A stretch of DNA of 64,000 bases from Pythium myriotylum (lineage: Eukaryota > Oomycota > Peronosporomycetes > Pythiales > Pythiaceae): contig JALJCQ010000001.1 of NCBI GenBank assembly GCA_023091665.1, forward strand, positions 3,348,001-3,412,000, in the 5' to 3' direction. Within the stretch, counting starts at the first letter, position 1. The number at the start of each line of letters is the position of its first letter. The position numbers were made by a program, and so were the translations under genes. Below the pieces are notes generated by a model. It was not told the DNA's origin. It searched no databases and was given only the letters and a program-made list of their open reading frames with translations. Below are positions 11,000 through 26,163 of the stretch, piece after piece.

Positions 11000-12384
11000 G
11001 TTGGAGAGATTGATTGCGACTTTTCAAGATCGCAGACTCAGTCATTCCTTTCCTCAGTCTCAGAGATGGATTCAGATTCCAGTGGGAAGTGGTTCCACGC
11101 GAAGGATGTATCCCCTGGCTTTAGCAACGTATAATCGGTTCTCGTGCGCGCGGCAGAACCGTTTTTTTTTTTTTCTCCTCGCGGAACGGTTCTCCACTCT
11201 TGCGGGGGCCGTGTCGACACTCGCAAAACACGAGCTCCCAGTCGCTGGATCGTCTGCACTGGCTTTCTTTGGCTGGGTGTGGCAAACGTGGCGACGGGGC
11301 AAAGACGGGCCAGCGACGCAATCGGCCGGCGGCCGCAGCTGCGCGAGAGAAGAGGCCGTCGGGCCCAGGCCAGTGGGTGCCACTGGCGTCAGTCTGTCTC
11401 ATGTGGCCGCGCCGTCCACCAAGGGGACGCTCGGCAAGAGTCCATTTCATCGGGCTGTCGCCGCGTGACCTAATGACCGTCCGGGCTTTTGCGTTCTCTC
11501 TCTTTTGTGTTTTTCGCAAAGTCGGTTCCACGACGAGAGCAATCGTGCGTGGCGTCAGCCCAAGAGTCGTGGGGGCGCGCTGATGCAGTGATGCATTCCT
11601 GCCGAGCCCGACAGGGGGGGGGGGGGGTACGCCAGAACGGTTCCGCCCCAATGCGCTAATCCAGTAGGTACTGTACAGTACCCGCGAGTCCCTTCCATTC
11701 TCCACGCCAGTGATTTGCCACCCTCTAAATTTTTCGAAGGCCGGGCAGAAAGGAAGAGGAGACGCTTCTCCCGAGAGAAAGCAGCCATGAGATCTGTGAA
11801 CCCACGCGTGTCAAAATGTCCTGAGAGGCCCCCGACTGGACCAACCCGAAAATGGATACCACGTGGGTCCCTGGCTGCCGTTGGTGTCCATGTATCTCGC
11901 CCGCTTGATGGATTCCTGCGCAAATTCGGAAGCGGAACCGTTCCACGCTCCAGCGCCTCTACTCAGAACGAAAAACTGGTTCCACGACCACTTTGGGCGA
12001 GATGCCGTCGTCATCTCCTCGGAAAAAGCTCGCCTGCTCTCCGTCGCCTTCAAGAAGCGCGCCGCGTGCCGGTGGAATGTTCTCTGGTTTCAGCGTTGGT
12101 GCCGCGCAACGTGTATCACTTCTCACAGGTTCTCCCAACGACCCGACGAAGTGGCTGTCACACCCGTCCAGCCGGCCTTCCCCCCATCCATACCCGCGTC
12201 AAGTCCGCTGTCGCCTCTTCGCGTGTCTCCCTCTCTTTTCTTATACACGTCCGCGAATCTTCGCCCAATCCCGACAATTTTTTTGTTCTCCTTCCCCCCT
12301 CCGCCCATCCATGGCGCCCTCCCTTTTTCCTCTTCTTCTCACTCGCCAAACGCACGCTTCCCAGAACACATTTCCCCCGACGCC
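11000..12384. other. Intergenic region between Sec10 and the FAD oxidase
   Basis: About 1.4 kb separate two divergent starts. I find no supportable gene. Visible features are a T13 run near 11162, a G12 run near 11617, a 16-bp perfect palindrome (GGTACTGTACAGTACC, 11667-11682) and long pyrimidine stretches after 12170 that probably belong to the oxidase leader. Open frames here have odd composition and no recognisable motif. Confidence 0.5.
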
Positions 12385-14157
12385 ATGGGATCCCTCCGTG
12401 GGATGCCGTCGCCCGTCGCGGCGACGCTGCACGAGCCCTCCGCCACCGCCGCCTACGGCGCCAAGCCGCGAGTCGCCGGCGCCGCCGTGCGCGCGCACCG
12501 CGTCGCCGAGCCGCTCGAGCCGCCCATGCCAACGAATCCAACGAACCCGACCAAGCGCTCGCTCGAGGTCGCGGCGCCCGAGCTCGAGACGCGCAGCGTG
12601 GCGTCGACGACGTCGTCGGCCGGCCCCGAGGGCGAGCTGCTGCCGCCGCTGACCAACGTGACGGCCTCGAAGCGCGCGCACCTCGTGGAGACGAGCCCGC
12701 CCGTCGAGATCAAGCGCGTGATCGTCTGCGGCGCCGGCATCGTCGGGCTCACGACCTGCTACTACCTCGCCAAGCTCGGCCACGAAGTGCTCTGCGTCGA
12801 GAAAGAGAGCTCGGTCGGCACGCAGGCCAGCCTCTGCAACGGCGCGTTCCTCGACCCGGCCATGTACTCGTCCTGGGCCGACATGGGCAACCTCAAGCGC
12901 GTCAAGGCCGCCGCGGCCACGGGCGGCGTCTCGCGCACGATCCTCGAAGTCTCGCGCTCGGGCGGCAGCGGCGGCGGCGCAGCAGCCGCAGACGCCAGCG
13001 CCGCGTCGGGCGAAACGGCGCCGCTCAAGCGCGCGCGCGCCACGCAGTCGATGACGAGATCGAGCGGCACGGGACGAGGATGGAGAGGACTCGGCAAACC
13101 CATGAAGCTCGAGTTCTCGGCGCTGCGCGACCCGACGTTCTGGAAATGGGGCTGGAAATTCTACCGCAACTCGAAGAACAAGGCCAAGGCCGACGCCAAC
13201 AGCCGCACGATCCGCGAGCTCGGCTTCTATAGCATGATCAAGCTTCGAGAACTGCAGATGCACGCCAAGAAAGGAGAGCTCGAGATGGACGAGACGGCCG
13301 AAGGCACCATCGAGGTCTTCCGCAACGGCGCCGAGCTCGACCATGTCTGGGAATCGGACCGCAAGCGACACTTGGAAGAGCTCGGCATGGACCTGCAGCC
13401 CATGGACGCCCAGTCGGCCGAAGAACTCGAGTCGGCGCTGCGCCCCGAAGTGTACGAGCCCGGCGCCATCCTCTCGGCCTACGGCACCAGCGGCGACGTC
13501 CACAAGATGTGCCAGGCGCTCTACAAGCTCTGCGTGCGCGAGGGCGTCATGTTCCGCTTCAACGCTGAAGTCATCGAGATTCTCCGCAACCGCACGCGCG
13601 TCATCGCGCTCCAGACACGGCGCGGTGCTCTCATCGAAGGCGACGAGTTCGTGCTCGCGATGGGCAACGCCACGGCGCCGATCGCGCGCCGCGCCGGGCT
13701 CCCGCTCAGTATTTATCCGGTCAAGGGCTACGTGATCTCGGTGCCCGTGAGCCGCCACTTCAAGCCGCTCTCGCACAACGTGTACGCCGGCGGACTCGCG
13801 CTCGTGTCGCCGCTCGGCCGTTGGCTCCGCATCTCGGGCGGCGTGGACTTTTCCAACCCAAACAAGAGGCAATCGAACCAGCCTCGCTTTGACTGGCTGC
13901 TCGACCAGGCCAAGACACTTTTCCCCGACGGATACCTCAACACCAAGGAGATGAAGACCCATGTGTGCTGGAGGCCCGTAACCCCCGACGACGTGCCGTT
14001 CATCGGGCGCACCCGTATCGAGAACCTGTTTGTGAACGCCGGCCACGGCTCCAAGGGCTGGACGCTTTCGTTCGGCGCCGCCGCGTTGCTGGCAGACCTC
14101 ATTAGCGGCCTGAGGCCGCAGCTCGACGTATCCAAGTTTGACCCACATCGCGTGTAA
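12385..14157 (+). CDS. DadA-like FAD-dependent amino-acid dehydrogenase/oxidase
   Basis: An intronless 590-residue protein. The ATG at 12385 has a good context (GACGCCATGG). After about 110 polar residues comes the Rossmann FAD motif GAGIVGLTTCYYLAKLGHEV at about 114-133. The DAO-fold C-terminus is CWRPVTPDDVPFIG, then NAGHGSKGWTLSFGAAALLADL. Both are typical of the D-amino-acid dehydrogenase (DadA) branch of FAD-dependent oxidoreductases, which oxidise amino acids to keto acids. An Ala/Gly/Ser-rich insert of about 60 residues (about 175-235) interrupts the family core, and the protein is much longer than bacterial DadA (about 430). The substrate is not readable from sequence. The N-terminus may be a targeting segment but is not a clear signal peptide. 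Very GC-rich third positions produce long antisense frames. Confidence 0.82.
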   Translation: MGSLRGMPSPVAATLHEPSATAAYGAKPRVAGAAVRAHRVAEPLEPPMPTNPTNPTKRSLEVAAPELETRSVASTTSSAGPEGELLPPLTNVTASKRAHLVETSPPVEIKRVIVCGAGIVGLTTCYYLAKLGHEVLCVEKESSVGTQASLCNGAFLDPAMYSSWADMGNLKRVKAAAATGGVSRTILEVSRSGGSGGGAAAADASAASGETAPLKRARATQSMTRSSGTGRGWRGLGKPMKLEFSALRDPTFWKWGWKFYRNSKNKAKADANSRTIRELGFYSMIKLRELQMHAKKGELEMDETAEGTIEVFRNGAELDHVWESDRKRHLEELGMDLQPMDAQSAEELESALRPEVYEPGAILSAYGTSGDVHKMCQALYKLCVREGVMFRFNAEVIEILRNRTRVIALQTRRGALIEGDEFVLAMGNATAPIARRAGLPLSIYPVKGYVISVPVSRHFKPLSHNVYAGGLALVSPLGRWLRISGGVDFSNPNKRQSNQPRFDWLLDQAKTLFPDGYLNTKEMKTHVCWRPVTPDDVPFIGRTRIENLFVNAGHGSKGWTLSFGAAALLADLISGLRPQLDVSKFDPHRV

Positions 14158-14573: not shown

Positions 14574-17500
14574 CTACAGTTGGAACCAAGCCTGCTCGTG
14601 CTCGAGATCCTCCGGCGTGAGCGAGATCCAACCATTTGAGACGAGCGGCATGATCAGCTTGTCGAAGTACTCCGAGTCGGTGGGTCGGTGGAAAAACCAC
14701 TCGGCACACGCGTGGCATTGGTCGAGACTCAGGAACGGATTGCTCGGGTCTTCGTCGTGACTGGACAGAGGCACACTCTGCTCCGCCTCGATCCGGGCTT
14801 TCAGGCGAGAATGGAGCCGTTGTGCTGCAAGAGTTACGAGCTGCTGGGCCAGTTTTCCGAGGAATTCTTGTTGAACACGAAGGGAGTAGGCCTTGAGTTC
14901 TGGCTCGCTGATCGGGGCTCGATTCTCAATGCACAAAACTTCTTCCAGTGACAATACCCGACGCCGAAGCTGCGATATCCGTTGCTGGCGTCTATAGCGT
15001 TGATCAATGTAATGCCTCGTCTCGGACATGAGCTGGCAAACTGGCGAGTAGTCCAAAAGATCTTCAACTTCATCTCGAGCGTTCAGAGTCGAGCCAAACT
15101 CATCCTCGGCGATTTGTCTTAATTCCTAGCAATAGTCCATCGAGCTGATAGTCAGACCACCTGCAGCCAGGCAGCACATTAAGAAACTGATAACGCACCT
15201 CATAAAGGCTCATCGCCCTCGCAGCGGTTTTCTCGGACGGTCCAGTGGCGACGTCATCATCAAACGTGAAAATTCTTAGAGGTCGTACCGTCTGATGACA
15301 AGGTGACGACAACCAGTGTCGAGACATGGTCCCACGTGGAGACGGGAGCGGAGACCGCTGGTTGTCTCCGATAGCTCGCGGAGATCGGACCGAAACGAAG
15401 TCGAGCGGCGGCTTTAAGGACGCCCGCGATGTGCAGGCTGGGTCGTCGATCTCGTCCTGATTCTTCAGATCTGTATCAGATAGTGACGAGCGCACTGATA
15501 CAGGTAACAGCGCCGGTAACGCGGTATCCGGGGCCCAAATCGGCCCATCATGGAAGCACTCGTTGTCGTCGCCATAGGTGTGTTGCGCGGGGACGAAATT
15601 TCCGGATGCTTGCGCGGTTCTCGTTGTGACATCATGATGGAAATTATCATCCTCATCAACGGGATTACACACGAAAGCGAATGGCCCAGGTTCCCCAGCC
15701 TCAAGTTGGTTCTCAGAACGTTCACTTGAGTCCTTGGGCTTTTCTTCCTCTTGTATTTCTGGTGTGAGCGATCTTCTGGTCTTGTCCGACTGGAAGATGG
15801 TGTTATCATATGTCGAAATCGGACGTGAGCACTCGTAGTGATCGGTCAAAACAGCAGCTTCCAGCTTGAAATCTTGTTCAATTTCAAATGGGAATTGATC
15901 CATCTTGCTGGATTCGTTCTCGCTCAATGTGTGCTTCGACAATCCGCCAGTCAAAGTTAACTTTGCGGAGTGGTCGTTCGAGGGAGTTGAAATTGAATCC
16001 TCTTCCTTCGGGATGCTGAGCTCGATAGATTCGTTACAGTCATCTTGAACGCATCCTGCTGTGACCGATTCGCTTAGTGTCGAGAAGGTGGCATGTTGGA
16101 AGTCTGTGGGGCAAACGTTTCTGGAAGAAGAGGGTAGAGATGTAAGAGGTAACGAATCTGGTTCTCTGTGAGTCAGTGGTTGAGTTGCCAACACCTCGGA
16201 GGATGAATCAAACTGAACACCAGCATCTACGCAACAAATAGGGGCACACCAAGTCGACACGTCGCACATCATAGTGATTGGATCGATGCCAGTGAATGTC
16301 TCCGCGTCATTACGCGTTCTCGTAACTGCGAGGGCAGCCTCTACACAAAGCACGCCAATTGGATTTGCTACACCCAACGCTTGATTCTCGTCGACTGTAG
16401 TTGCCATGGCTGCAGACGTCATAGCTTGGATATGTGTTGCTCCCTCAACAATTTCGGTTGCCTCAGTGCAGGTCTCCACATCATTCAACATCGTCATTTC
16501 CGAACGAGTCACGAGGCTATTTGCACTGGTTGGGGCCACATCAATGGGTAGCAAAGACTCGAACTGGGTGGCCACATGAACACCTGACTTGGCGTCGGTA
16601 TACGTCTCCACTTCTACGAGCTTAGGCGCGTCAGGCTGAGTCGCAGAGTCAACGGCAACACAAAAGTCAGTGCTGACCTCAACTTCCACAAAAACTGCTA
16701 CCTCCGATTGGATCGCAGTGTCCACGGAGTCAATTATATTGGTATTGACGCCCGCTTCCACTGATACCGGTACGTCGAGTTGAGTGCACGCGTCCACCGT
16801 AGCTCTCGCATTGGTGATAAGTCTCACGTCCTCCGCCACAAATTCGTGCGGATCCGTTCCAGCATCTACCTTGCAGTCAACAGATTGCGGCTCAGTTGAC
16901 TGATCAACACACTCCATAGCAGGCCAACTCTCTGGCGGTAGCTGTATATCGCTCAACTGCAGTCGAGTCGGATAGATCTGAACAGCCGAGTCCACCAAGA
17001 CACCGCGCAAATCGGAACTGTCTGTCCACGCTTCCGCTGATAAATCACGGTCTGTCATGACTTCCGCTTCAACATGAGAAGGTTTCCAGTCTGTCTGGAT
17101 TGAAACTTCAAAAAATCTCTTCGGGGTCAAGATGACTTCATCAATGACTTCAGTTGACGTTGACTTGTCCACGAATTTGTCATCTTGTTCCCTAGTACTT
17201 TCACCCTCGAATTGAGTATGAGCATCAATCTGAGGAAAGATGGTGATCTCTGTGGTCATCTCAACGTCTCTTCGGCTGTCAACTTTTCGCTGCTTTCTCA
17301 ACGACCTTTCATGCTCATTAGCTGCGATTTCTTCATCTCGCTTTCGAGCAGATTGTTCAAGCTCCTCGATTTGGCATGTGAGGCGTCTGACTTCTTCCTG
17401 GAGACAGCTGATTTCAAGGCTTCTCGGGCTCAGTGGTACCTCCACGATAGCTTCTGCACGAATAACGCATTTCTCGGCCTTGTTCTGGATATTTCTCGCT

Positions 17501-18766
17501 CGGTTCGCGAATTGGAGAGTAATTAAAGTCTCATCTGCATTCGAGTCTAAAGGAGACACACACGCTCTGCATGTTTGACTCAATCGCTTGTTCAACAACG
17601 TCAGGGCATTCCAATTGCGTACTTACATGAACAAAGTTCTCGCATTTCCTCCTAGACCGTCCCGTAGCAACCTCGTCAGTTTGGAAGATCGATACGGAAT
17701 GTGGGCATCAGGTGAAGACGGGCGAGAGGCGGAGTCCTGGTTGCTTCGACGTTGCATTTTCTTCTCATCTGCCAACGCGTTTATGACATTTCCCAGAGCA
17801 CTGAGCCCCACTACGATAACAACACATCACATCAGTAAGTACGCATCGTAAACTGTGCATCACGAGGTACGCACTATTGATTTGGATGCTTTCTCGCTTC
17901 CGCACACCCTCAACTTGAGTCTTCTTGATCCTCTCACTACCCGCGAGATCCACAAAGGTGACCTTGGACTTCTTTGTTTCACTCAGGAACTTGCGAGTTA
18001 CTTCCATCGTGTACACGGCGTGGGAGCGACTGGACTCATCGTTGAGGGCGTTCACTCCGACTGTTTGGCGAGCTCGGCCAGAGTTGAGAACTTCTAGTGC
18101 ACGCGACAGAGTCTCAACCTGCACCGAGCGGACATTCTCGACCCATACATTATGTGAATCGTCTCGGATAGTCAACGTCTTATTGACCCGATCATCGAGC
18201 AAGTCGCGGATGGTGTCGCAATAGATCTCAACGAAGGTCACACGAATGTCTCTGATACTGGGCTCTTTCTTGAGGTTCACGAACAGGTCGTTGAGAAACC
18301 GAGGCATGAGACCGTCCTCCGCTGAGCCTCGGAAGCTCTTGACTTCAGGTACTACGATGGTTGGAGCAGGTAGCGACGAGGCTCGCTCACGGCCAGGCGA
18401 CGTGGTGGGTGTCGTGTTGAAGACGGTCGCCTTGTTGCCCATAGTGTAAGTTTTGCCTGAGCCCGTCTGCCCGTACGCCATGACCGTCACATTGAACCCG
18501 TCCAAGAACTGTGCCATGAGCGGCTGCAATGCGTTCGCGTAGAGGTCTTCCTGGGTCGCCTCTGGGCCGAAGACATGGTCGAACGTGAAGGTCTTGGCCT
18601 GCTCTTCGTGGTGAAAGGCCACAGCGTTGGGCGCATGCGCGTGCGGTACGACGCACGGCGGGCGAGTGGCGTCCTTCGGGATCTTGGCATCGGGCGGACG
18701 CACGCGCACGGCCACGCGGATGCGAGAGCTGGCGGCGGCGCTGTTGAGAGACCCACGGCGCTGCAT
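14574..18766 (-). CDS. Kinesin-4-type motor protein with a Ser/Thr-rich repeat tail
   Basis: Four exons: 18766-17875, 17810-17627, 17566-15199 and 15125-14574 (introns of 64, 60 and 73 nt; phases 1, 2 and 0) encode about 1,331 residues. The motor spans about residues 15-385. It has P-loop GQTGSGKT (about 102), switch [13 protein letters not shown], switch [15 protein letters not shown], then [15 protein letters not shown], and after splicing [17 protein letters not shown] and [11 protein letters not shown]. The last two resemble kinesin-4/KIF21. A short coiled coil follows. Residues about 510-740 are a degenerate tandem array of a roughly 20-residue acidic unit (VD.ATQ....V..E..T.TD). The C-terminal 184 residues are helical and not recognised. 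The motor is plus-end type by family; cargo is unknown. It diverges from the second kinesin at 19385, which shares the ACxSP intron position. Confidence 0.85.
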
Positions 18767-19384: not shown

Positions 19385-22300
19385 ATGAGACGCGCGTCCA
19401 TGGCTCCAGCTCCTGCGGGTGAAGACGCGCCTGGCGGTGCCGTCGGTACCTCTCACGGCGCCGCAAGTGGCCTGAGTCGCCTGCAAATGCCCCAAGTCGT
19501 GCCGGTGCTGACGCGCCCGCCGATTCCCAGTCCGTCGGAAGGTTCGGGCTCGGCCTCGACGTCGTTCGATGACGCCGGTGCGTGCGTAGAGAGTGGAGAT
19601 GACGGCGACGTGGTTATGGCGCCTGCGCGGCGCACGCCGCCGACGTCGCCGTCGACGACGAGAAAGGACGGAAGTGTGCAAGTCGCAGTGCGTGTCCGAC
19701 CGCTCCTGCCCAAAGAAATCCTCTCGCGAGTGGGAACTTGCGTGAAGAGTGAAGGTAACAAGGTCCATATCCCATCGAATGATAAGACGTTCACGTGAGT
19801 GCTAGAGCTGGTGTCGCTTGGTCGCTTGGACTCACCAGTCGTTGTGTGACAGGTACGATCACGTGTTTCCCGTGGAAGCAAGCCAGAAAGGTATGGAGCA
19901 ATTTATGCATTCCTTTGGGTTGACGTAGCGAGTTGCTCACCTTTGAGCAGATCTGTATAATCAGGTCGTTGAGCCTCTGATGGATCCATTCTTGCAAGGC
20001 TACAATGTCACCATATTGGCGTATGGCCAAACTGGGGCAGGCAAAACTTATACCATGGGCAATGATAGCTCGACACTTGTTCTCACAACTGGATCGCAAG
20101 ATTGCGCAGTCAACGACTCGATGCAGGATGATGTGGGTGTCATCCCGAGATTTATTGATGAGATGTTTGCGAAACTTGACCGAGATAAAGACCGATCCAA
20201 TGACGAGGTAACAGTATCATTTCTTGAGATTTATGGTGAAGAGATCCGTGATCTTCTCGATCAAAATCGAGGTCTATCACGTGATGGTCTCCAGATTCGT
20301 GAGAGCAGTGGCAGTGTGTGGGTCCAAGGTCTCACGGAGGTGAGTTACTCAAAGCAAAGATTTACTTTTGGTGATACTCAATTGACTGGCGTAGGTAAAA
20401 GTCGCGAATTCCATTGAAGCGAGCGAACAGATGCGACGAGGGTGTTTCCGACGAATCACAGGTAGTACAGGGATGAATGAACGCTCGAGCCGTTCACATG
20501 CTATCTACACCGTCAAGCTCGTAAGGAAGGCCAAAAAATGCCAAACTACAAGTTCTGATGCAGTTGCACGGGGTATCGTTCCACCAAACAAGCGTCGAGG
20601 AAGCAAAAAATATGTGCCGTTTCCGTCGAGTCAAAATCCGGTGGATGACGCCGAAACCGAGTCGACCGTTATCTCCAAGTTGACTTTCGTCGACCTCGCT
20701 GGGAGTGAGAGGTTGAAGAAGACACAGGCGGAGGGTGATAGGATGAAGGAAGGTATACAGATTAATGTTGGTCTTCTCGCACTTGGCAACGTCATCACTG
20801 CACTGGGCGATGAGAGACGACGATCAAACCCTCGTCAACACGTAGCATATCGAGACTCCAAGCTCACTCGTCTCCTTCAAGATGCCCTCGGTGGCAATAG
20901 TCGGACTCTGTTCATGTATGTAAATCCCTGTCCTTTTTGATGTGGATATCCCGGTAATGTGTGCAATGTGGTTGGCGCAGTGCGTGCATATCTCCAGCTG
21001 AGTCAAGCTTAAGCGAAACTATCAACACTCTGCAATACGCGAGTCGCGCCAAAAACATTCAAAACAAGGCAGTGAAGAACATCGATCCACGGTCGGCGGA
21101 GCTCGCACGATTAAAAGTGTTAAATGACGTATTGCGAAGTGCACTCACCAAGGCATGTGCACTTGTGACTGGAGATTTCGACTATCGCCACACCGAGCTG
21201 AATGCACACAGCATAGACGTTGTAGTGTTGGACTACCTACGGAAGCTGGAGCAAATCGCGTGGTCTGTTGCAAGTGGGGCGCTATCCTCATCAGATGCTA
21301 CATTGGAAGTTTCGAAAGCAATGTCGACGATCATCGCACGCAGGGGATCTCTTCCACCATGCGACTTTTTTCCAGGATACAGTTCATCCAAGCTTGTAGA
21401 TGCGAAAAGCGGTAGCTCGGCTTCGTCGTTGGCTGAAATGACTTACAGTGACACTGGGTCTTCAGTTCACTTCTCTGGAATGGACGACATCTATCAGCCG
21501 ACCAATCTCGCGGGTGTTGCGAGAGTTCTGCAAGTAATTGGTCTAACTCTCGAGATACAAGAGCTTCGTGGGAAGTTATCTTCACTCCAAGCGGAATTTA
21601 ATGCATCCATGTCGCACCTCGATGCTCGACTGTCCCAGAAGAACGCACTGGTTTTCGCCAATGAAGCCGCACTCGAGAAAATGAAATGTTGGGAAACGGA
21701 GGCAATCCCAAGCACCAGCGTCTCTAAGCGAATGGAGAGTTTCACGCATTTGTCTGGTAGACTCGATCTGCTGAAAATTGAAGTAAGAGCCATCACTGAA
21801 GAGAAGGAGACCCGAGTATCAGAATTCGACAAGGCATCCAGAGCAATTCAATCCGAAATCCAAGAACGACAGCTTGCAATCGAGAAAGCTCGTCTTGCGA
21901 GTGATAATTCTGCTATTGCTGAGCGCAGAAGTTCAATCGATCTAATTGTACAAGTGGCGGAGCTCAAAGTACGACAATTGATTGATTCGGGCGTTAACTT
22001 TAGTGTGGGACTAAATTTTTATATGTAGAACAGATTCGGGCTCGCTGAGCTTTGCGACGTTGCCTGGGCACTGCAAGACGACGAAAAAGAGGTCTGCGAG
22101 TTTCTTGACGACGAGCCAGAGGCACTTGCTTTCGAGCCTAGGCTTTTCTCAGGTGAAGTGGGTGGTGATGCTCGCAGTGCGTACAATCAGATTCAGAACG
22201 CGATTGAGGTGGGATCATACTTTTTCAATCTTGCTTAAGACAAGGCTGATGCGTATAATTTGATGGCAGAGTGCCATCGTGGAAGAGGACCTACACACAT

Positions 22301-24944
22301 CGCAGTGCAAGAAACTTCGCGAACGCACCGCGATTCTGCAACGTATTGTAGGTGGCTGGACTCAAGATTCTTACTCGAAGTCGGAAGAGGAGTTTCTCGC
22401 TGCGAATGAGGAGCAACTTCGCTCATGTGAGGAGAGTATTCGAGAAATCAGTCAAGCTCTCCGTCACCGGCGCCACCAGAACTCATCTATTGGCTACCTG
22501 ATCGACGGAATGGATTCTCTCGACCTTGCTAAAGGTGTAATCAGAAGCCTTGTTGACGCTCTTTACGGGCACAAACGAATCGCGATGACTCGCCTACATG
22601 TTAACAATTTGTCGGCACAGAAGAGTGAGCAACTACCAGATAATGGTCGAACCATTCGTAACGACGACTCGCATGAAGAAAAGCTGCGCGCTCTTGAGCA
22701 GAAATTCTGCGAAGATCTTGCAGCTGCCTACGAGTCAGTTAGGCCGTTTTCAATTGACTCGCTGAGTCTCGAGAGTGAGGCTTTTCTTGCTCAAAGGCAG
22801 GATGATGCGATAAGGATTCGAGAACTAGAAGAACGCAACAGACTCGGTACAGCTGAGATCACAAAGATGCAAAGAGAAATCGAGAATCTCACGAAAAGTG
22901 TCGATTCGATGAAGGAACAGTTCCAACAATTAAAGGAACTTGCGGTCATTAGAGAGGTACCTGTTCTACGAGATTATTTAGAATTATTCAACTCACACAT
23001 GTTTCTGTTACGTAGGAATGCGAACAGCTTGCGAAGGAGCTGGGGCTTCAGACTAAGGATTTTTCTGGAATAGCTGCACTTATTAATCCACTGGCGATGG
23101 CGGAGGCGCGCGAAATCTGCGAAAACCTCAGAGCACAGAAAGCCAGCAAGATGGAGCAGATTGATCTTGCTTGGAGTCGAGTGAAGCGGTTAGAAATGAT
23201 TCTGGAGGCAGACGATACTTTTGATCTTACCCATCTTGGGAACCGTCATGAAAGTCTCCTGGATGATCAGCTGTTTGCAATTCGAATGCATCAAAAGAAG
23301 CTTGCTGATGAATTGTCGCGAAGGTTGGACTCTCATCTCCGAGTACTCGACTCAATTTATGAACTCGTGACCGAGGTTGAGATAGCCCGTGTAGAAGACC
23401 TGCTCTACGCAAAACATTTACTCTGCCAAGAAGATCTCGACCGTGTGCTCAAATTAATGCCCGGACGCTCGGCGTGCCGGCAGCTCCAGATTATACCTGA
23501 CCTGGAAACTGCAATCGCGGAAGTTTTACCCAAAGATGAGGTTCTGAATGAGATTCTATCAGTGAAGATTCACGATCGCAACAGCCAGATCTTGAAAGCA
23601 TTGTTGCTCGAAAAGACTACCCGACATGCTGAAATTGAGAAGATTGCTGACGAAATCCGTTCGTTGGTGGAGCTCATGGCTCTAACCCAAGCTGAAGTTC
23701 AGACTACGCTTCATCTGATTGAACCACAGTCTTCCGAAAAGCAGCATACATGGGCAGGGTTCGCCGATGAGATGAGCGGAATTCTCGGCATAGGGTTTCA
23801 AATCGATACCAGCGTGCAGATGATGAAACGTTTGATCACCGTACGAGACGGCTTCGTGAGGATCAGAGATTGTAGGTCAAAGGCGCTATCCTTCTTGACC
23901 TCAAAACTCGACGAAGCTGAAAAGATAGCACATGAAGAGTATACAAGTTCTGGCATCGCAGTGTCTTTAGCAGCACCTTCAAGCTGTAGTAGCAACCAGA
24001 TGGACGCCAAGGAGTGGAGTTGTTCTCGCGATTCGTTGCAGTTATGCTTGGGGAAATTCCAACACTTGTTCGAGTCATTAAGTCAAGAGATCCGCCCAAG
24101 TCTCTTGAAAATGAACAGTATCCTCGTGAACGACTACGGGATTGATAACAGTCTGCAACGACTGAGTTTCTTTTTGGGATCAGACGACACTGTGAACAAC
24201 CCAAATAGGAAGGTTCTCGAGAAATATCTGTTTGTGGGTGAAGAAAAGGTGGTGGAGGACGAACCAGCCAATCCTTACAGTGGCAGCCTCTTGTCCGAGT
24301 TGGATCCAGCATACGAAGATTATGCAAGGTTTTATTCTCCGTCGTTCACGTCCACCCGATTATCCGAACTTCGAAATGGCGCGAATGAGGTGCGGATCAT
24401 CAAAGAGATCGTTCAATCTGCTAATACTCGGCTGGAATCACTTCGAAAGATCAGCGGTGGGTTGAGTGCGCTCGAGGCGTTGAAGAAAGAAATTAAGGAC
24501 TTCGCCCAGAATGCACAAAGTAGAAATCGGCTGTTCGGCAATTCGTCCGTGTTATTGCAAGAGGACAAGATGAGGAAGAGATTTGCGCGGGAGTATGCGT
24601 CCAAGATTGCTTATCTGCGTGAAGAGGCAACCAGATGGGCTGTAAATGAACGGGGAGAGTTTGACCTCGGAATTCTTGGCGAAGGTCTGAAGAAGGTGGT
24701 GACTGATCAACTCAATGAAGACACGCACCTCATGCACCTTGACGTGGGAGTTCTCGATCCTTCTCGCCCATCAGCACGAAGAGCCTCCAAGACTGCGGCG
24801 GGGATGGCAGTTCCCACTCTACCTGTGACGCCTGGCGCAAGCCCAAATCAATCTATTCATCCAAACCAAGAGTCTTCAACTGCAGTTCCAAGAACTCGTC
24901 CAGGATCTGCACTTGCACGCGATGGAAGCGGCAAGAAGCGCTAA
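19385..24944 (+). CDS. Kinesin-4-type motor fused to a MAP65/Ase1/PRC1-like tail
   Basis: Eight exons: 19385-19794, 19853-19890, 19951-20339, 20395-20915, 20981-21968, 22029-22208, 22270-22956 and 23016-24944. Introns are 55-65 nt, phases agree, and the product is about 1,713 residues. The motor is at about 98-485: P-loop [12 protein letters not shown] (about 176), [27 protein letters not shown], then [17 protein letters not shown] and [10 protein letters not shown], a kinesin-4 pattern. Long coiled coils follow. Residues about 1070-1650 are helical, spectrin-like. Near 1520-1635 the segment [19 protein letters not shown], then a basic helix, RW and a Glu-rich turn matches the MAP65/Ase1/PRC1 signature around NRF.nRG..L..EEK. 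The tail end is basic and Ser/Pro-rich. Such a protein could cross-link and slide antiparallel microtubules. The motor call is firm; the MAP65 call is from motif reading only. Confidence 0.82.
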
Positions 24945-25043: not shown

Positions 25044-26163
25044 TTAAGCGCGATGAAGATTTTGCTTCTGCTGCTGATACTTCTGGTACTTGCTCGTGAG
25101 TTCCCACCCAAGCCCCGTGAAGACGATGGCGACACCAATCCACGACATGGTCGTGAGCTGGTGGCCGTACCAGACGACCGAGAAGAGGATCGTGAAGAAC
25201 TTGCGTGTGGTCGTGATCGTCGTGCACGTGAGCGCAGAGAACTGTTGGATGGTGAAGTAGATGAAGTTCTGTCCGAGAGCGCTGCAGATCGAGAAGTAGA
25301 AGACCGAGTTGAGGATCGCAGGGTTCTCGACGCAGAAGAGGAAGCCCGAGTACGCTTGGCCCGTGAGCAGGGCGCCGGCGCCAGTGTAGATGACGGCCCA
25401 GAGGTTCGTGTAGAACATTTGCTGGTGGACCGACGGACGCAGCAGGTGCGAGATCTCTTCCTGCTTGGGGCCCGAGACGCCGTCGAGGGTGAGCGACACG
25501 AACAGCAGCAGCAGGCCGTAGGTACTGTTCTCCTGCGCCGCGTGCTTGGCCGAGGCCTTGCCCAGCTGGAACACTGCGATGCCCGTGGTGATGAGCAGCA
25601 CGCAGATGTAGTCACGCAGCGTGTACTTCTTGCGGCGGATGAGCACGCCCATGAGCATGACGGGGATCATCTTGCACGACTTGCCGAGCGCCTGCGTCGG
25701 GTAGCTCACGTGCTTGAGCGCCTCGTTACTGCAGAGCATCGCGCCGAGGTACGCGAACGACGTCACGGCGAAGGGCTTGAGCGGCATGGTCGGGCGCTGC
25801 GGCTTCCACACAAACGTCGCTACAGCACACAATGGCATTAATCGCCACCAAAAAACCAATCCTCGCGCGATCGCGCCAACTCACCCGAGTACGCCACGAG
25901 CGCGTTCGTGAGACACTGCACAAAGAGCATGAAGAGCGTGGCCGTGAACTTGTCGCCATCGGGCGTGCGGTACGTGAAGCTGCGCACAAACTCGCACGTC
26001 AGCGAAAGCTCAAGTGTCATCGAAGCCTCGCTTGCGATCATGACACGCACATTTTCTCCTGGAAGATGCCGTACGAGAGGTAGCAGATGTAGATGCCGCC
26101 GATGCAGATGAGCAGGTTGAGGATGCCCGAGTCGGCGCCCGCGGCGCGAGGCTTGGTCGCCAT
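25044..26163 (-). CDS. SLC35B1/HUT1-type nucleotide-sugar transporter
   Basis: Three exons: 26163-26051, 25979-25885 and 25819-25044 (introns of 71 and 65 nt) encode about 327 residues. The protein is a string of hydrophobic helices of the UAA/drug-metabolite transporter fold. The first helix ICIGGIYICYLSYGIFQEKI crosses the first splice junction and matches SLC35B1. Later landmarks are YLGAMLCSNEALKHVSYPTQ, then GKSCKMIPVML, and near the end ALTCTTITTTRKFFTILFSV. The family sits in the ER membrane and exchanges nucleotide sugars or ATP/ADP. The C-terminus is Lys/Gln-rich (KYQKYQQQKQ). The acceptor at 25980 was chosen because it restores QEKI-FTYRTPDG in frame. An in-frame ATG at 26232 would add 23 residues. 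The gene ends 99 bp from the convergent kinesin stop. Confidence 0.85.

What the first reader, a model, noticed from the sequence alone, without database searches (positions are those of the whole stretch)
19385..24944. Kinesin-4-type motor fused to a MAP65/Ase1/PRC1-like microtubule bundler
The rebuilt 1,713-residue protein has a kinesin-4-like motor. Near its C-terminus it has [19 protein letters not shown] followed by a basic helix and Trp, which matches the core signature of MAP65/Ase1/PRC1 as I know it. In animals KIF4A (kinesin-4) and PRC1 are separate proteins that work together to set antiparallel overlap length in the spindle midzone. One polypeptide carrying both would be a Rosetta-stone fusion able to bundle and regulate overlaps alone. 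The motor is seen directly; the tail identity is a motif-level reading.
Basis: partly seen in the sequence, partly recalled or inferred. Interest (0 to 1): 0.75.

Follow-up and report, generated by a model that had tools for sequence, protein, structure and literature searches.

The report
Kinesin-4-like motor with PRC1-like tip
An oomycete gene encodes a motor protein whose far end carries a weak, unproven likeness to the microtubule-gripping part of PRC1, a separate protein that works with such motors in animals.

Summary
The gene model holds. Eight exons (window 19385-24944, +) with seven GT..AG introns of 55-65 nt give one 1,713-residue protein; each exon scores best in the chosen frame. 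The motor is a kinesin (PF00225, E 4.6e-99) whose best solved relatives are kinesin-4 proteins.

A full MAP65/Ase1/PRC1 fusion is not established. The whole protein and exon 8 do not match PF03999. Shorter pieces holding the last ~100 folded residues do, at best E 0.0014 and 18 bits against a cut-off of 26.9. That match lies on the C-terminal part of the profile, and the cited motif keeps PRC1's spacing. But the same tail gives equally weak hits to unrelated families; profile comparison, PDB sequence searches and fold prediction gave no support. For the ~1,000 residues in between there is no Pfam match to MAP65, only one weak alignment to PRC1.

Most likely: a crosslinking kinesin with a diverged PRC1-type tip (about 45%). 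An unrelated helical tail is nearly as likely (about 40%).

The parts
19385..24944 (+). whole gene, 8 exons and 7 introns, 1,713-residue kinesin-4-type protein (stop codon included)
   Evidence: splicing and frame, coding scores
19691..21059 (+). kinesin motor domain, residues 103-479, spread over exons 1-5; P-loop GQTGAGKT at 20025-20048, switch I NERSSRSH at 20476-20499, switch II DLAGSE at 20692-20709
   Evidence: PF00225 E 4.6e-99; KIF4 is the best solved relative, 282.6 bits; coordinates. The motif names are recalled
21060..24413 (+). long, mostly helical middle of the tail, residues 480-1537 (exons 5-8), with no recognised domain
   Evidence: 10 pieces without the C-terminal end list no PF03999; the part in exon 8 is modelled as mostly helix, at low confidence
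24414..24710 (+). candidate PRC1/MAP65-type microtubule-binding domain, residues 1538-1636
   Evidence: PF03999 profile positions 331-428 of 477, E 0.0017, 17.6 bits, cut-off 26.9
24525..24575 (+). motif [17 protein letters not shown], residues 1575-1591, aligned without gaps to human PRC1 NRFTNRGGNLLKEEKQR
   Evidence: score 32, only place in 264,520 windows; coordinates
24750..24941 (+). basic, Ser/Pro-rich C-terminal end, residues 1650-1713: 10 Lys/Arg, 3 Asp/Glu, 18 Ser/Pro of 64
   Evidence: composition counted; PRC1 and MAP65 also end in a basic disordered tail (recalled)

Best explanation
One oomycete gene makes a kinesin-4-type motor with a ~1,230-residue, mostly helical tail. I think the last ~100 folded residues are most likely a strongly diverged copy of the C-terminal three-helix (spectrin-type) domain of the MAP65/Ase1/PRC1 family, followed by a basic disordered end. 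It would work as a crosslinking motor: the head steps along one microtubule while the tail tip holds a second, so that sliding and grip sit in one polypeptide. Shown: the gene, the motor, the motif. Inferred: homology of the tip, dimerisation, microtubule binding by the tail, any role in the spindle midzone. Not claimed: PRC1's dimerisation and rod domains.
For: PF03999 is listed for 8 pieces that hold the end and is the best of 24,736 families in 7 of them, E 0.0014-0.031, in each case on the C-terminal part of the profile. A reversed copy and 3 shuffles list no PF03999; 0 of 67 windows of other kinesin tails at E 0.01 and at most 1 of 95 at 0.003 (that list is cut). The 17-residue motif is unique in 264,520 windows. 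Of 10 identities with PRC1 in a 46-residue ungapped block, 8 fall in the 19 columns that PRC1 shares with MAP65-1 and 2 in the other 27, p 0.007. In automatic alignments 14 of 34 invariant columns are kept, reached by 1 of 162 decoys, 3 of 200 shuffles and 3 of 200 local shuffles.
Against: Below the curated cut-off, and not listed at E up to 10 for the three longest pieces that hold the end: 1,713, 737 and 642 aa. Spurious-looking hits as strong elsewhere in the tail: MoCF_biosynth 0.0014 and GAS 0.00067, BLOC1S3 0.0028. Against PRC1's C-terminal domain 11 of 67 decoys reach the tip's score with BLOSUM62 and 2 of 67 with BLOSUM45; against full PRC1 32 and 13; against plant MAP65 50 and 47. hhalign probability under 1% for 7 of 7 pieces. 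A PRC1 plus plant profile scores exon 8 within the shuffles. PRC1 absent from the PDB lists of 4 tail pieces. No usable fold. The motif's second basic position, Lys in PRC1, is Gln here.
Confidence: 0.45

Rival explanations
1. An ordinary kinesin-4-type motor with a lineage-specific helical tail unrelated to MAP65/PRC1. The tail carries cargo or partners in some other way; the motif and the weak PF03999 match are chance likenesses of a basic helical protein.
For: Everything listed against the best explanation: sub-threshold score, equally weak hits to unrelated families in the same tail, 89 families hit at E 0.01 by 68 windows of kinesin tails, ours included, negative hhalign and PDB searches. 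A reversed tail scores 75 against PRC1 where the real one scores 85.
Confidence: 0.4
2. A complete fusion: residues ~1000-1650 are a whole, diverged PRC1 (dimerisation, rod and spectrin domains) joined to a kinesin-4, able to bundle and size overlaps alone.
For: The tail is long enough and modelled as helical in exon 8 (low confidence). PRC1's N-terminal two thirds align to residues 1028-1293 with score 85, reached by 0 of 300 full shuffles and by 0, 2 and 1 of 200 local shuffles; MAP65-1 aligns to nearly the same stretch, but there 34 of 300 shuffles do as well. Searches for a separate PRC1 in this genome found no credible one.
Against: The reversed tail scores 75 and 59 against the same two proteins, where the real one scores 85 and 67, so much of this is common to helical sequence. 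No PF03999 listing for that stretch. In PRC1 the spectrin domain starts at residue 351 (PMC9164050), whereas here over 200 residues lie between the aligned stretch and the tip. The genome search with PF03999 did not report this gene either, so absence of a separate PRC1 is weak.
Confidence: 0.12
3. Two neighbouring genes wrongly joined: a short kinesin ending in exon 5 and a second helical protein.
For: No transcript data are at hand; introns 5-7 rest on splice signals, frame and coding score.
Against: Exons 5-8 are separated by only 59-61 nt with GT..AG ends, the frame runs on through all of them, and exons 6 and 7 have the highest coding scores of the gene, 0.32 and 0.29.
Confidence: 0.03

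Closest known systems
KIF4/KIF4A and other kinesin-4 motors
   Same: Motor domain: KIF4 is the best solved match (282.6 bits), and the first seven rows are KIF4, KIF7 and 7x4n, which I recall as a kinesin-4. N-terminal motor, long helical tail.
   Different: No KIF21A_4th domain at E up to 10, whereas the genome's L011 kinesin has it (E 7.5e-31). In animals the crosslinker PRC1 is a separate protein that recruits Kif4A (PMC6200392, passages).
PRC1 / Ase1 / MAP65 (PF03999)
   Same: C-terminal position, motif spacing, Leu, Trp and Phe at the same distances as PRC1, and a basic end after the domain.
   Different: Score below the family cut-off; dimerisation and rod domains not recognised; attached to a motor.
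Head-to-head kinesin on the - strand (window 18766-14574)
   Same: Motor 54% identical over aligned columns, same intron place in the Leu-Phe-Ile-Ala-Cys stretch, KIF4 its best solved match too.
   Different: A different tail: the two tails align at 53, the reversed tail at 46.
Other kinesins with a second microtubule-binding site, such as kinesin-14, kinesin-5 and kinesin-6 (recalled)
   Same: Same working principle as the one proposed: head on one microtubule, second site on another.
   Different: Their second sites are of other kinds; none is known to me to be a MAP65 domain (recalled, not searched exhaustively).

Membership tests
Kinesin superfamily | full motor domain (PF00225) over the cut-off | tested here: met
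   331.9 bits, profile 1-327 of 327
Kinesin-4 | motor closest to kinesin-4 members | tested here: met
   First seven PDB rows 254.5-282.6 bits against 224.5 for the next family. A ranking only; no tree was built
Kinesin-4 | KIF21A_4th tail domain, as in the genome's L011 kinesin (not every kinesin-4 need have it) | tested here: not met
   Absent at E up to 10; present in L011
MAP65/Ase1/PRC1 | PF03999 match over the curated cut-off | tested here: not met
   Best 17.9 bits against 26.9; none for whole protein or exon 8. Positive control MAP65-1: 285 bits
MAP65/Ase1/PRC1 | conserved loop and helix of the C-terminal domain | tested here: inconclusive
   Motif unique in 264,520 windows, 14 of 34 invariant columns kept, reached by 7 of 562 controls; but several score comparisons with decoys are unremarkable
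MAP65/Ase1/PRC1 | three-helix spectrin fold of the C-terminal domain | tested here: inconclusive
   Models at pLDDT 39.8 and 50.7, no Foldseek match
MAP65/Ase1/PRC1 | N-terminal dimerisation domain and rod | tested here: inconclusive
   No Pfam listing in pieces covering this part; one weak pairwise likeness to PRC1
MAP65/Ase1/PRC1 | bundles antiparallel microtubules | not testable with these tools
   needs purified protein

The most novel reading that the evidence does not exclude
A natural single-chain kinesin-4/PRC1: the organism has no separate PRC1, and this one protein crosslinks, slides and sizes antiparallel overlaps, so that evolution has fused the KIF4A-PRC1 partnership in a lineage far from animals.
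Probability: 0.1. Interest if true: 0.75.

Novelty: new variant of a known kind. Interest (0 to 1): 0.35.

Why it matters
If the tip is a PRC1-type domain, the partnership of kinesin-4 and PRC1 that sets overlap length in animal spindles would exist here in one chain, a natural test of whether motor and crosslinker must be separate to tune overlap length. If it is not, the case is a caution: in long helical tails, weak family hits and one attractive motif are easily found.

Tried and rejected
Relatives: exon 8 alone (none at E up to 10 among 7,994 candidates scored) and residues 500-1713 of the whole protein (none at E up to 1 among 7,984). The same database gave 2,854 hits for MAP65-1, of which I saw the 120 listed, with plant names or no name. 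The word filter reaches only fairly close relatives, and could not return full-length proteins because of the length limit, so absence from other oomycetes is not shown.

Structure: exon 8 (mean pLDDT 39.8) and residues 1505-1665 (50.7), both too poor; Foldseek and the VIA second look of the latter found nothing. I did not fold the tip inside an alignment with MAP65 proteins, because that would have imposed the answer.

Two-gene reading: rejected on frame, introns and coding score. The bacterial-type promoter and terminator scan of 21900-23100 says nothing for a eukaryote and was not used.

Weak genome hits: L004 (E 0.325 to the tip) is a SecA-like frame, not a MAP65; L002 (E 1.56 to MAP65-1) was not followed. 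The automatic alignment of the tip with full-length plant MAP65 proteins put it on the wrong part of them; it was set aside and the domains alone were aligned instead.

Papers: ten searches (searches returned nothing) listed no title or abstract start describing a kinesin-MAP65 fusion. Only passages of PMC5795050, PMC6200392, PMC2661371 and PMC9164050 were seen; all others as search listings.

Dropped before counting: 3 of the 20 fetched kinesin loci (L012, L016, L020) gave no decoy window because no whole tail stretch was in frame. The 95 windows overlap the 67, and both come from the same 17 loci.
Full report
What is there. The interval holds one gene on the + strand. Eight exons joined at seven GT..AG introns of 55-65 nt give 1,713 residues and a stop. 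The chosen frame has the best codon score of the three forward frames in 8 of 8 exons, and 5 of 7 introns contain an in-frame stop if read through. The organism is an oomycete: elicitin PF00964, which I recall as essentially confined to oomycetes, has 111 places in the 58.7 Mb assembly. The assembly has 80 kinesin-domain places, counted exon by exon.

The motor. PF00225 matches from end to end. Of the 60 solved structures shown (154 matched), the first seven are KIF4, KIF7 and 7x4n, which I recall as a kinesin-4 (254.5-282.6 bits); the next family has 224.5 bits. Among 17 other motors compared (16 of the 20 fetched loci, and the neighbour), the closest are L011 and the head-to-head neighbour, each 54% identical over aligned columns. 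L011 carries a KIF21A-type tail domain, which this protein lacks. No tree was built.

The tail against the MAP65 claim. The whole protein, residues 977-1713 and exon 8 list no PF03999 at E up to 10, while MAP65-1 gives 285 bits. Shorter cut-outs that hold the C-terminal folded end do: 1517-1663 E 0.0023; 1500-1660 0.0017, 1535-1640 0.0014, 1450-1713 0.0025, 1300-1713 0.0053; 1540-1646 0.0019, 1322-1621 0.031, 1572-1713 0.10. All eight lie on the profile from position 331 on, and all are under the cut-off of 26.9 bits. In seven of the eight PF03999 is the best family. The 10 pieces without this end list no PF03999, one of those lists being cut at 25 of 30. The cut-outs were chosen by me after the longer queries had failed.

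How much that is worth. A reversed copy and three shuffles list no PF03999. 0 of 67 windows from other kinesin tails of this genome do so at E 0.01, and at most 1 of 95 further, overlapping windows at 0.003. But 68 such windows, ours included, pick up 89 families at 0.01, and other parts of this tail hit unrelated families just as well: MoCF_biosynth 0.0014 and GAS 0.00067, BLOC1S3 0.0028. So E near 0.002 is not rare in such sequence. What counts is that the family was named beforehand and that the place is right.

The motif. Without gaps, [17 protein letters not shown] lies on PRC1's NRFTNRGGNLLKEEKQR, and the spacing holds on to the Leu, Trp and Phe that are residues 31, 38 and 46 counted from the Asn. 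With the human N-terminus recalled, the Arg is PRC1 R377. I recall R377 and K387 as microtubule contacts, but found no held paper that says so; K387 is Gln here. Of 10 identities in 46, 8 fall in the 19 columns that PRC1 shares with MAP65-1 and 2 in the other 27 (p 0.007). In automatic alignments 14 of 34 invariant columns are kept; 1 of 162 decoys, 3 of 200 shuffles and 3 of 200 local shuffles do as well.

Results against. With BLOSUM62, 11 of 67 decoys reach the tip's score against PRC1's C-terminal domain, 32 against full PRC1 and 50 against the plant domain; with BLOSUM45, 2, 13 and 47. Over 46 residues 3 of 199,270 other places beat the tip and 1 ties. hhalign gives under 1% for 7 of 7 pieces. 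A PRC1 plus plant profile scores exon 8 at 2.3 bits, with shuffles up to 4.0. PRC1 is not in the PDB lists at E up to 10 for four tail pieces.

The middle of the tail. PRC1 aligns to residues 1028-1293 with score 85, above all of 300 full shuffles and reached by 0, 2 and 1 of 200 local shuffles; but the reversed tail scores 75. MAP65-1 aligns to nearly the same stretch with 67, reached by 34 of 300 shuffles, its reversal 59. I count this as a hint at best.

Fold. With no relatives found, AlphaFold2 gave mean pLDDT 39.8 and 50.7. The helix layout of the tip (long helix, loop, 30-residue helix, short loop, helix) is what a three-helix domain would show, but at this confidence it is not evidence. 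Foldseek found nothing. One paper places PRC1's three-helix spectrin domain at residues 351-486 and credits the rod with microtubule binding (PMC9164050, passages); that the spectrin domain is the main binding site is my recollection.

A separate PRC1? PF03999, MAP65-1 and PRC1 searches of the whole genome found no credible gene, while EB1 and gamma-tubulin complex proteins were found. The PF03999 search did not report this gene either, so absence is only suggested.

How it would work. In animals PRC1 crosslinks antiparallel microtubules and recruits Kif4A by direct binding, and the pair slide microtubules until crowded plus ends stall (PMC6200392, passages). Here, if the tip binds microtubules, this motor would itself bridge two microtubules. 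Dimerisation, polarity preference and midzone location are inference.

Verdict. As a member of MAP65/Ase1/PRC1 it fails the curated test; that it works as a crosslinking motor stays open.

Noticed in passing
window 14574-18766, - strand: A second kinesin with a KIF4-like motor lies head to head with this gene (start codons about 620 bp apart), 54% identical in the motor and with an intron at the same place; its tail is rich in repeated acidic and Thr-containing stretches and unrelated. Its last exons were not resolved.
   Followed up: partly
L004:112-2382 (G000:C1, about 29-32 kb): A 756-aa open frame in this oomycete with SecA-type domains (SecA_DEAD 1.3e-10, P-loop_SecA 6e-07, SecA_PP_bind 7.5e-05), unexpected for a nuclear eukaryotic contig.
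   Followed up: partly
G000:C1:2480441-2556984: A dense cluster of elicitin-like genes, some in pairs with identical scores on opposite strands, as if recently duplicated.
   Followed up: no
window 20548-20661: The motor has an extra ~38 residues, partly basic, absent from KIF4, between the two stretches that align with it (residues 331-368).
   Followed up: no
window 11800-14157 (+) and 25044-25880 (-): Nearby genes are ordinary: an FAD-dependent oxidoreductase (DAO, 8.5e-53) and part of a UAA-type nucleotide-sugar transporter (1.7e-56).
   Followed up: yes
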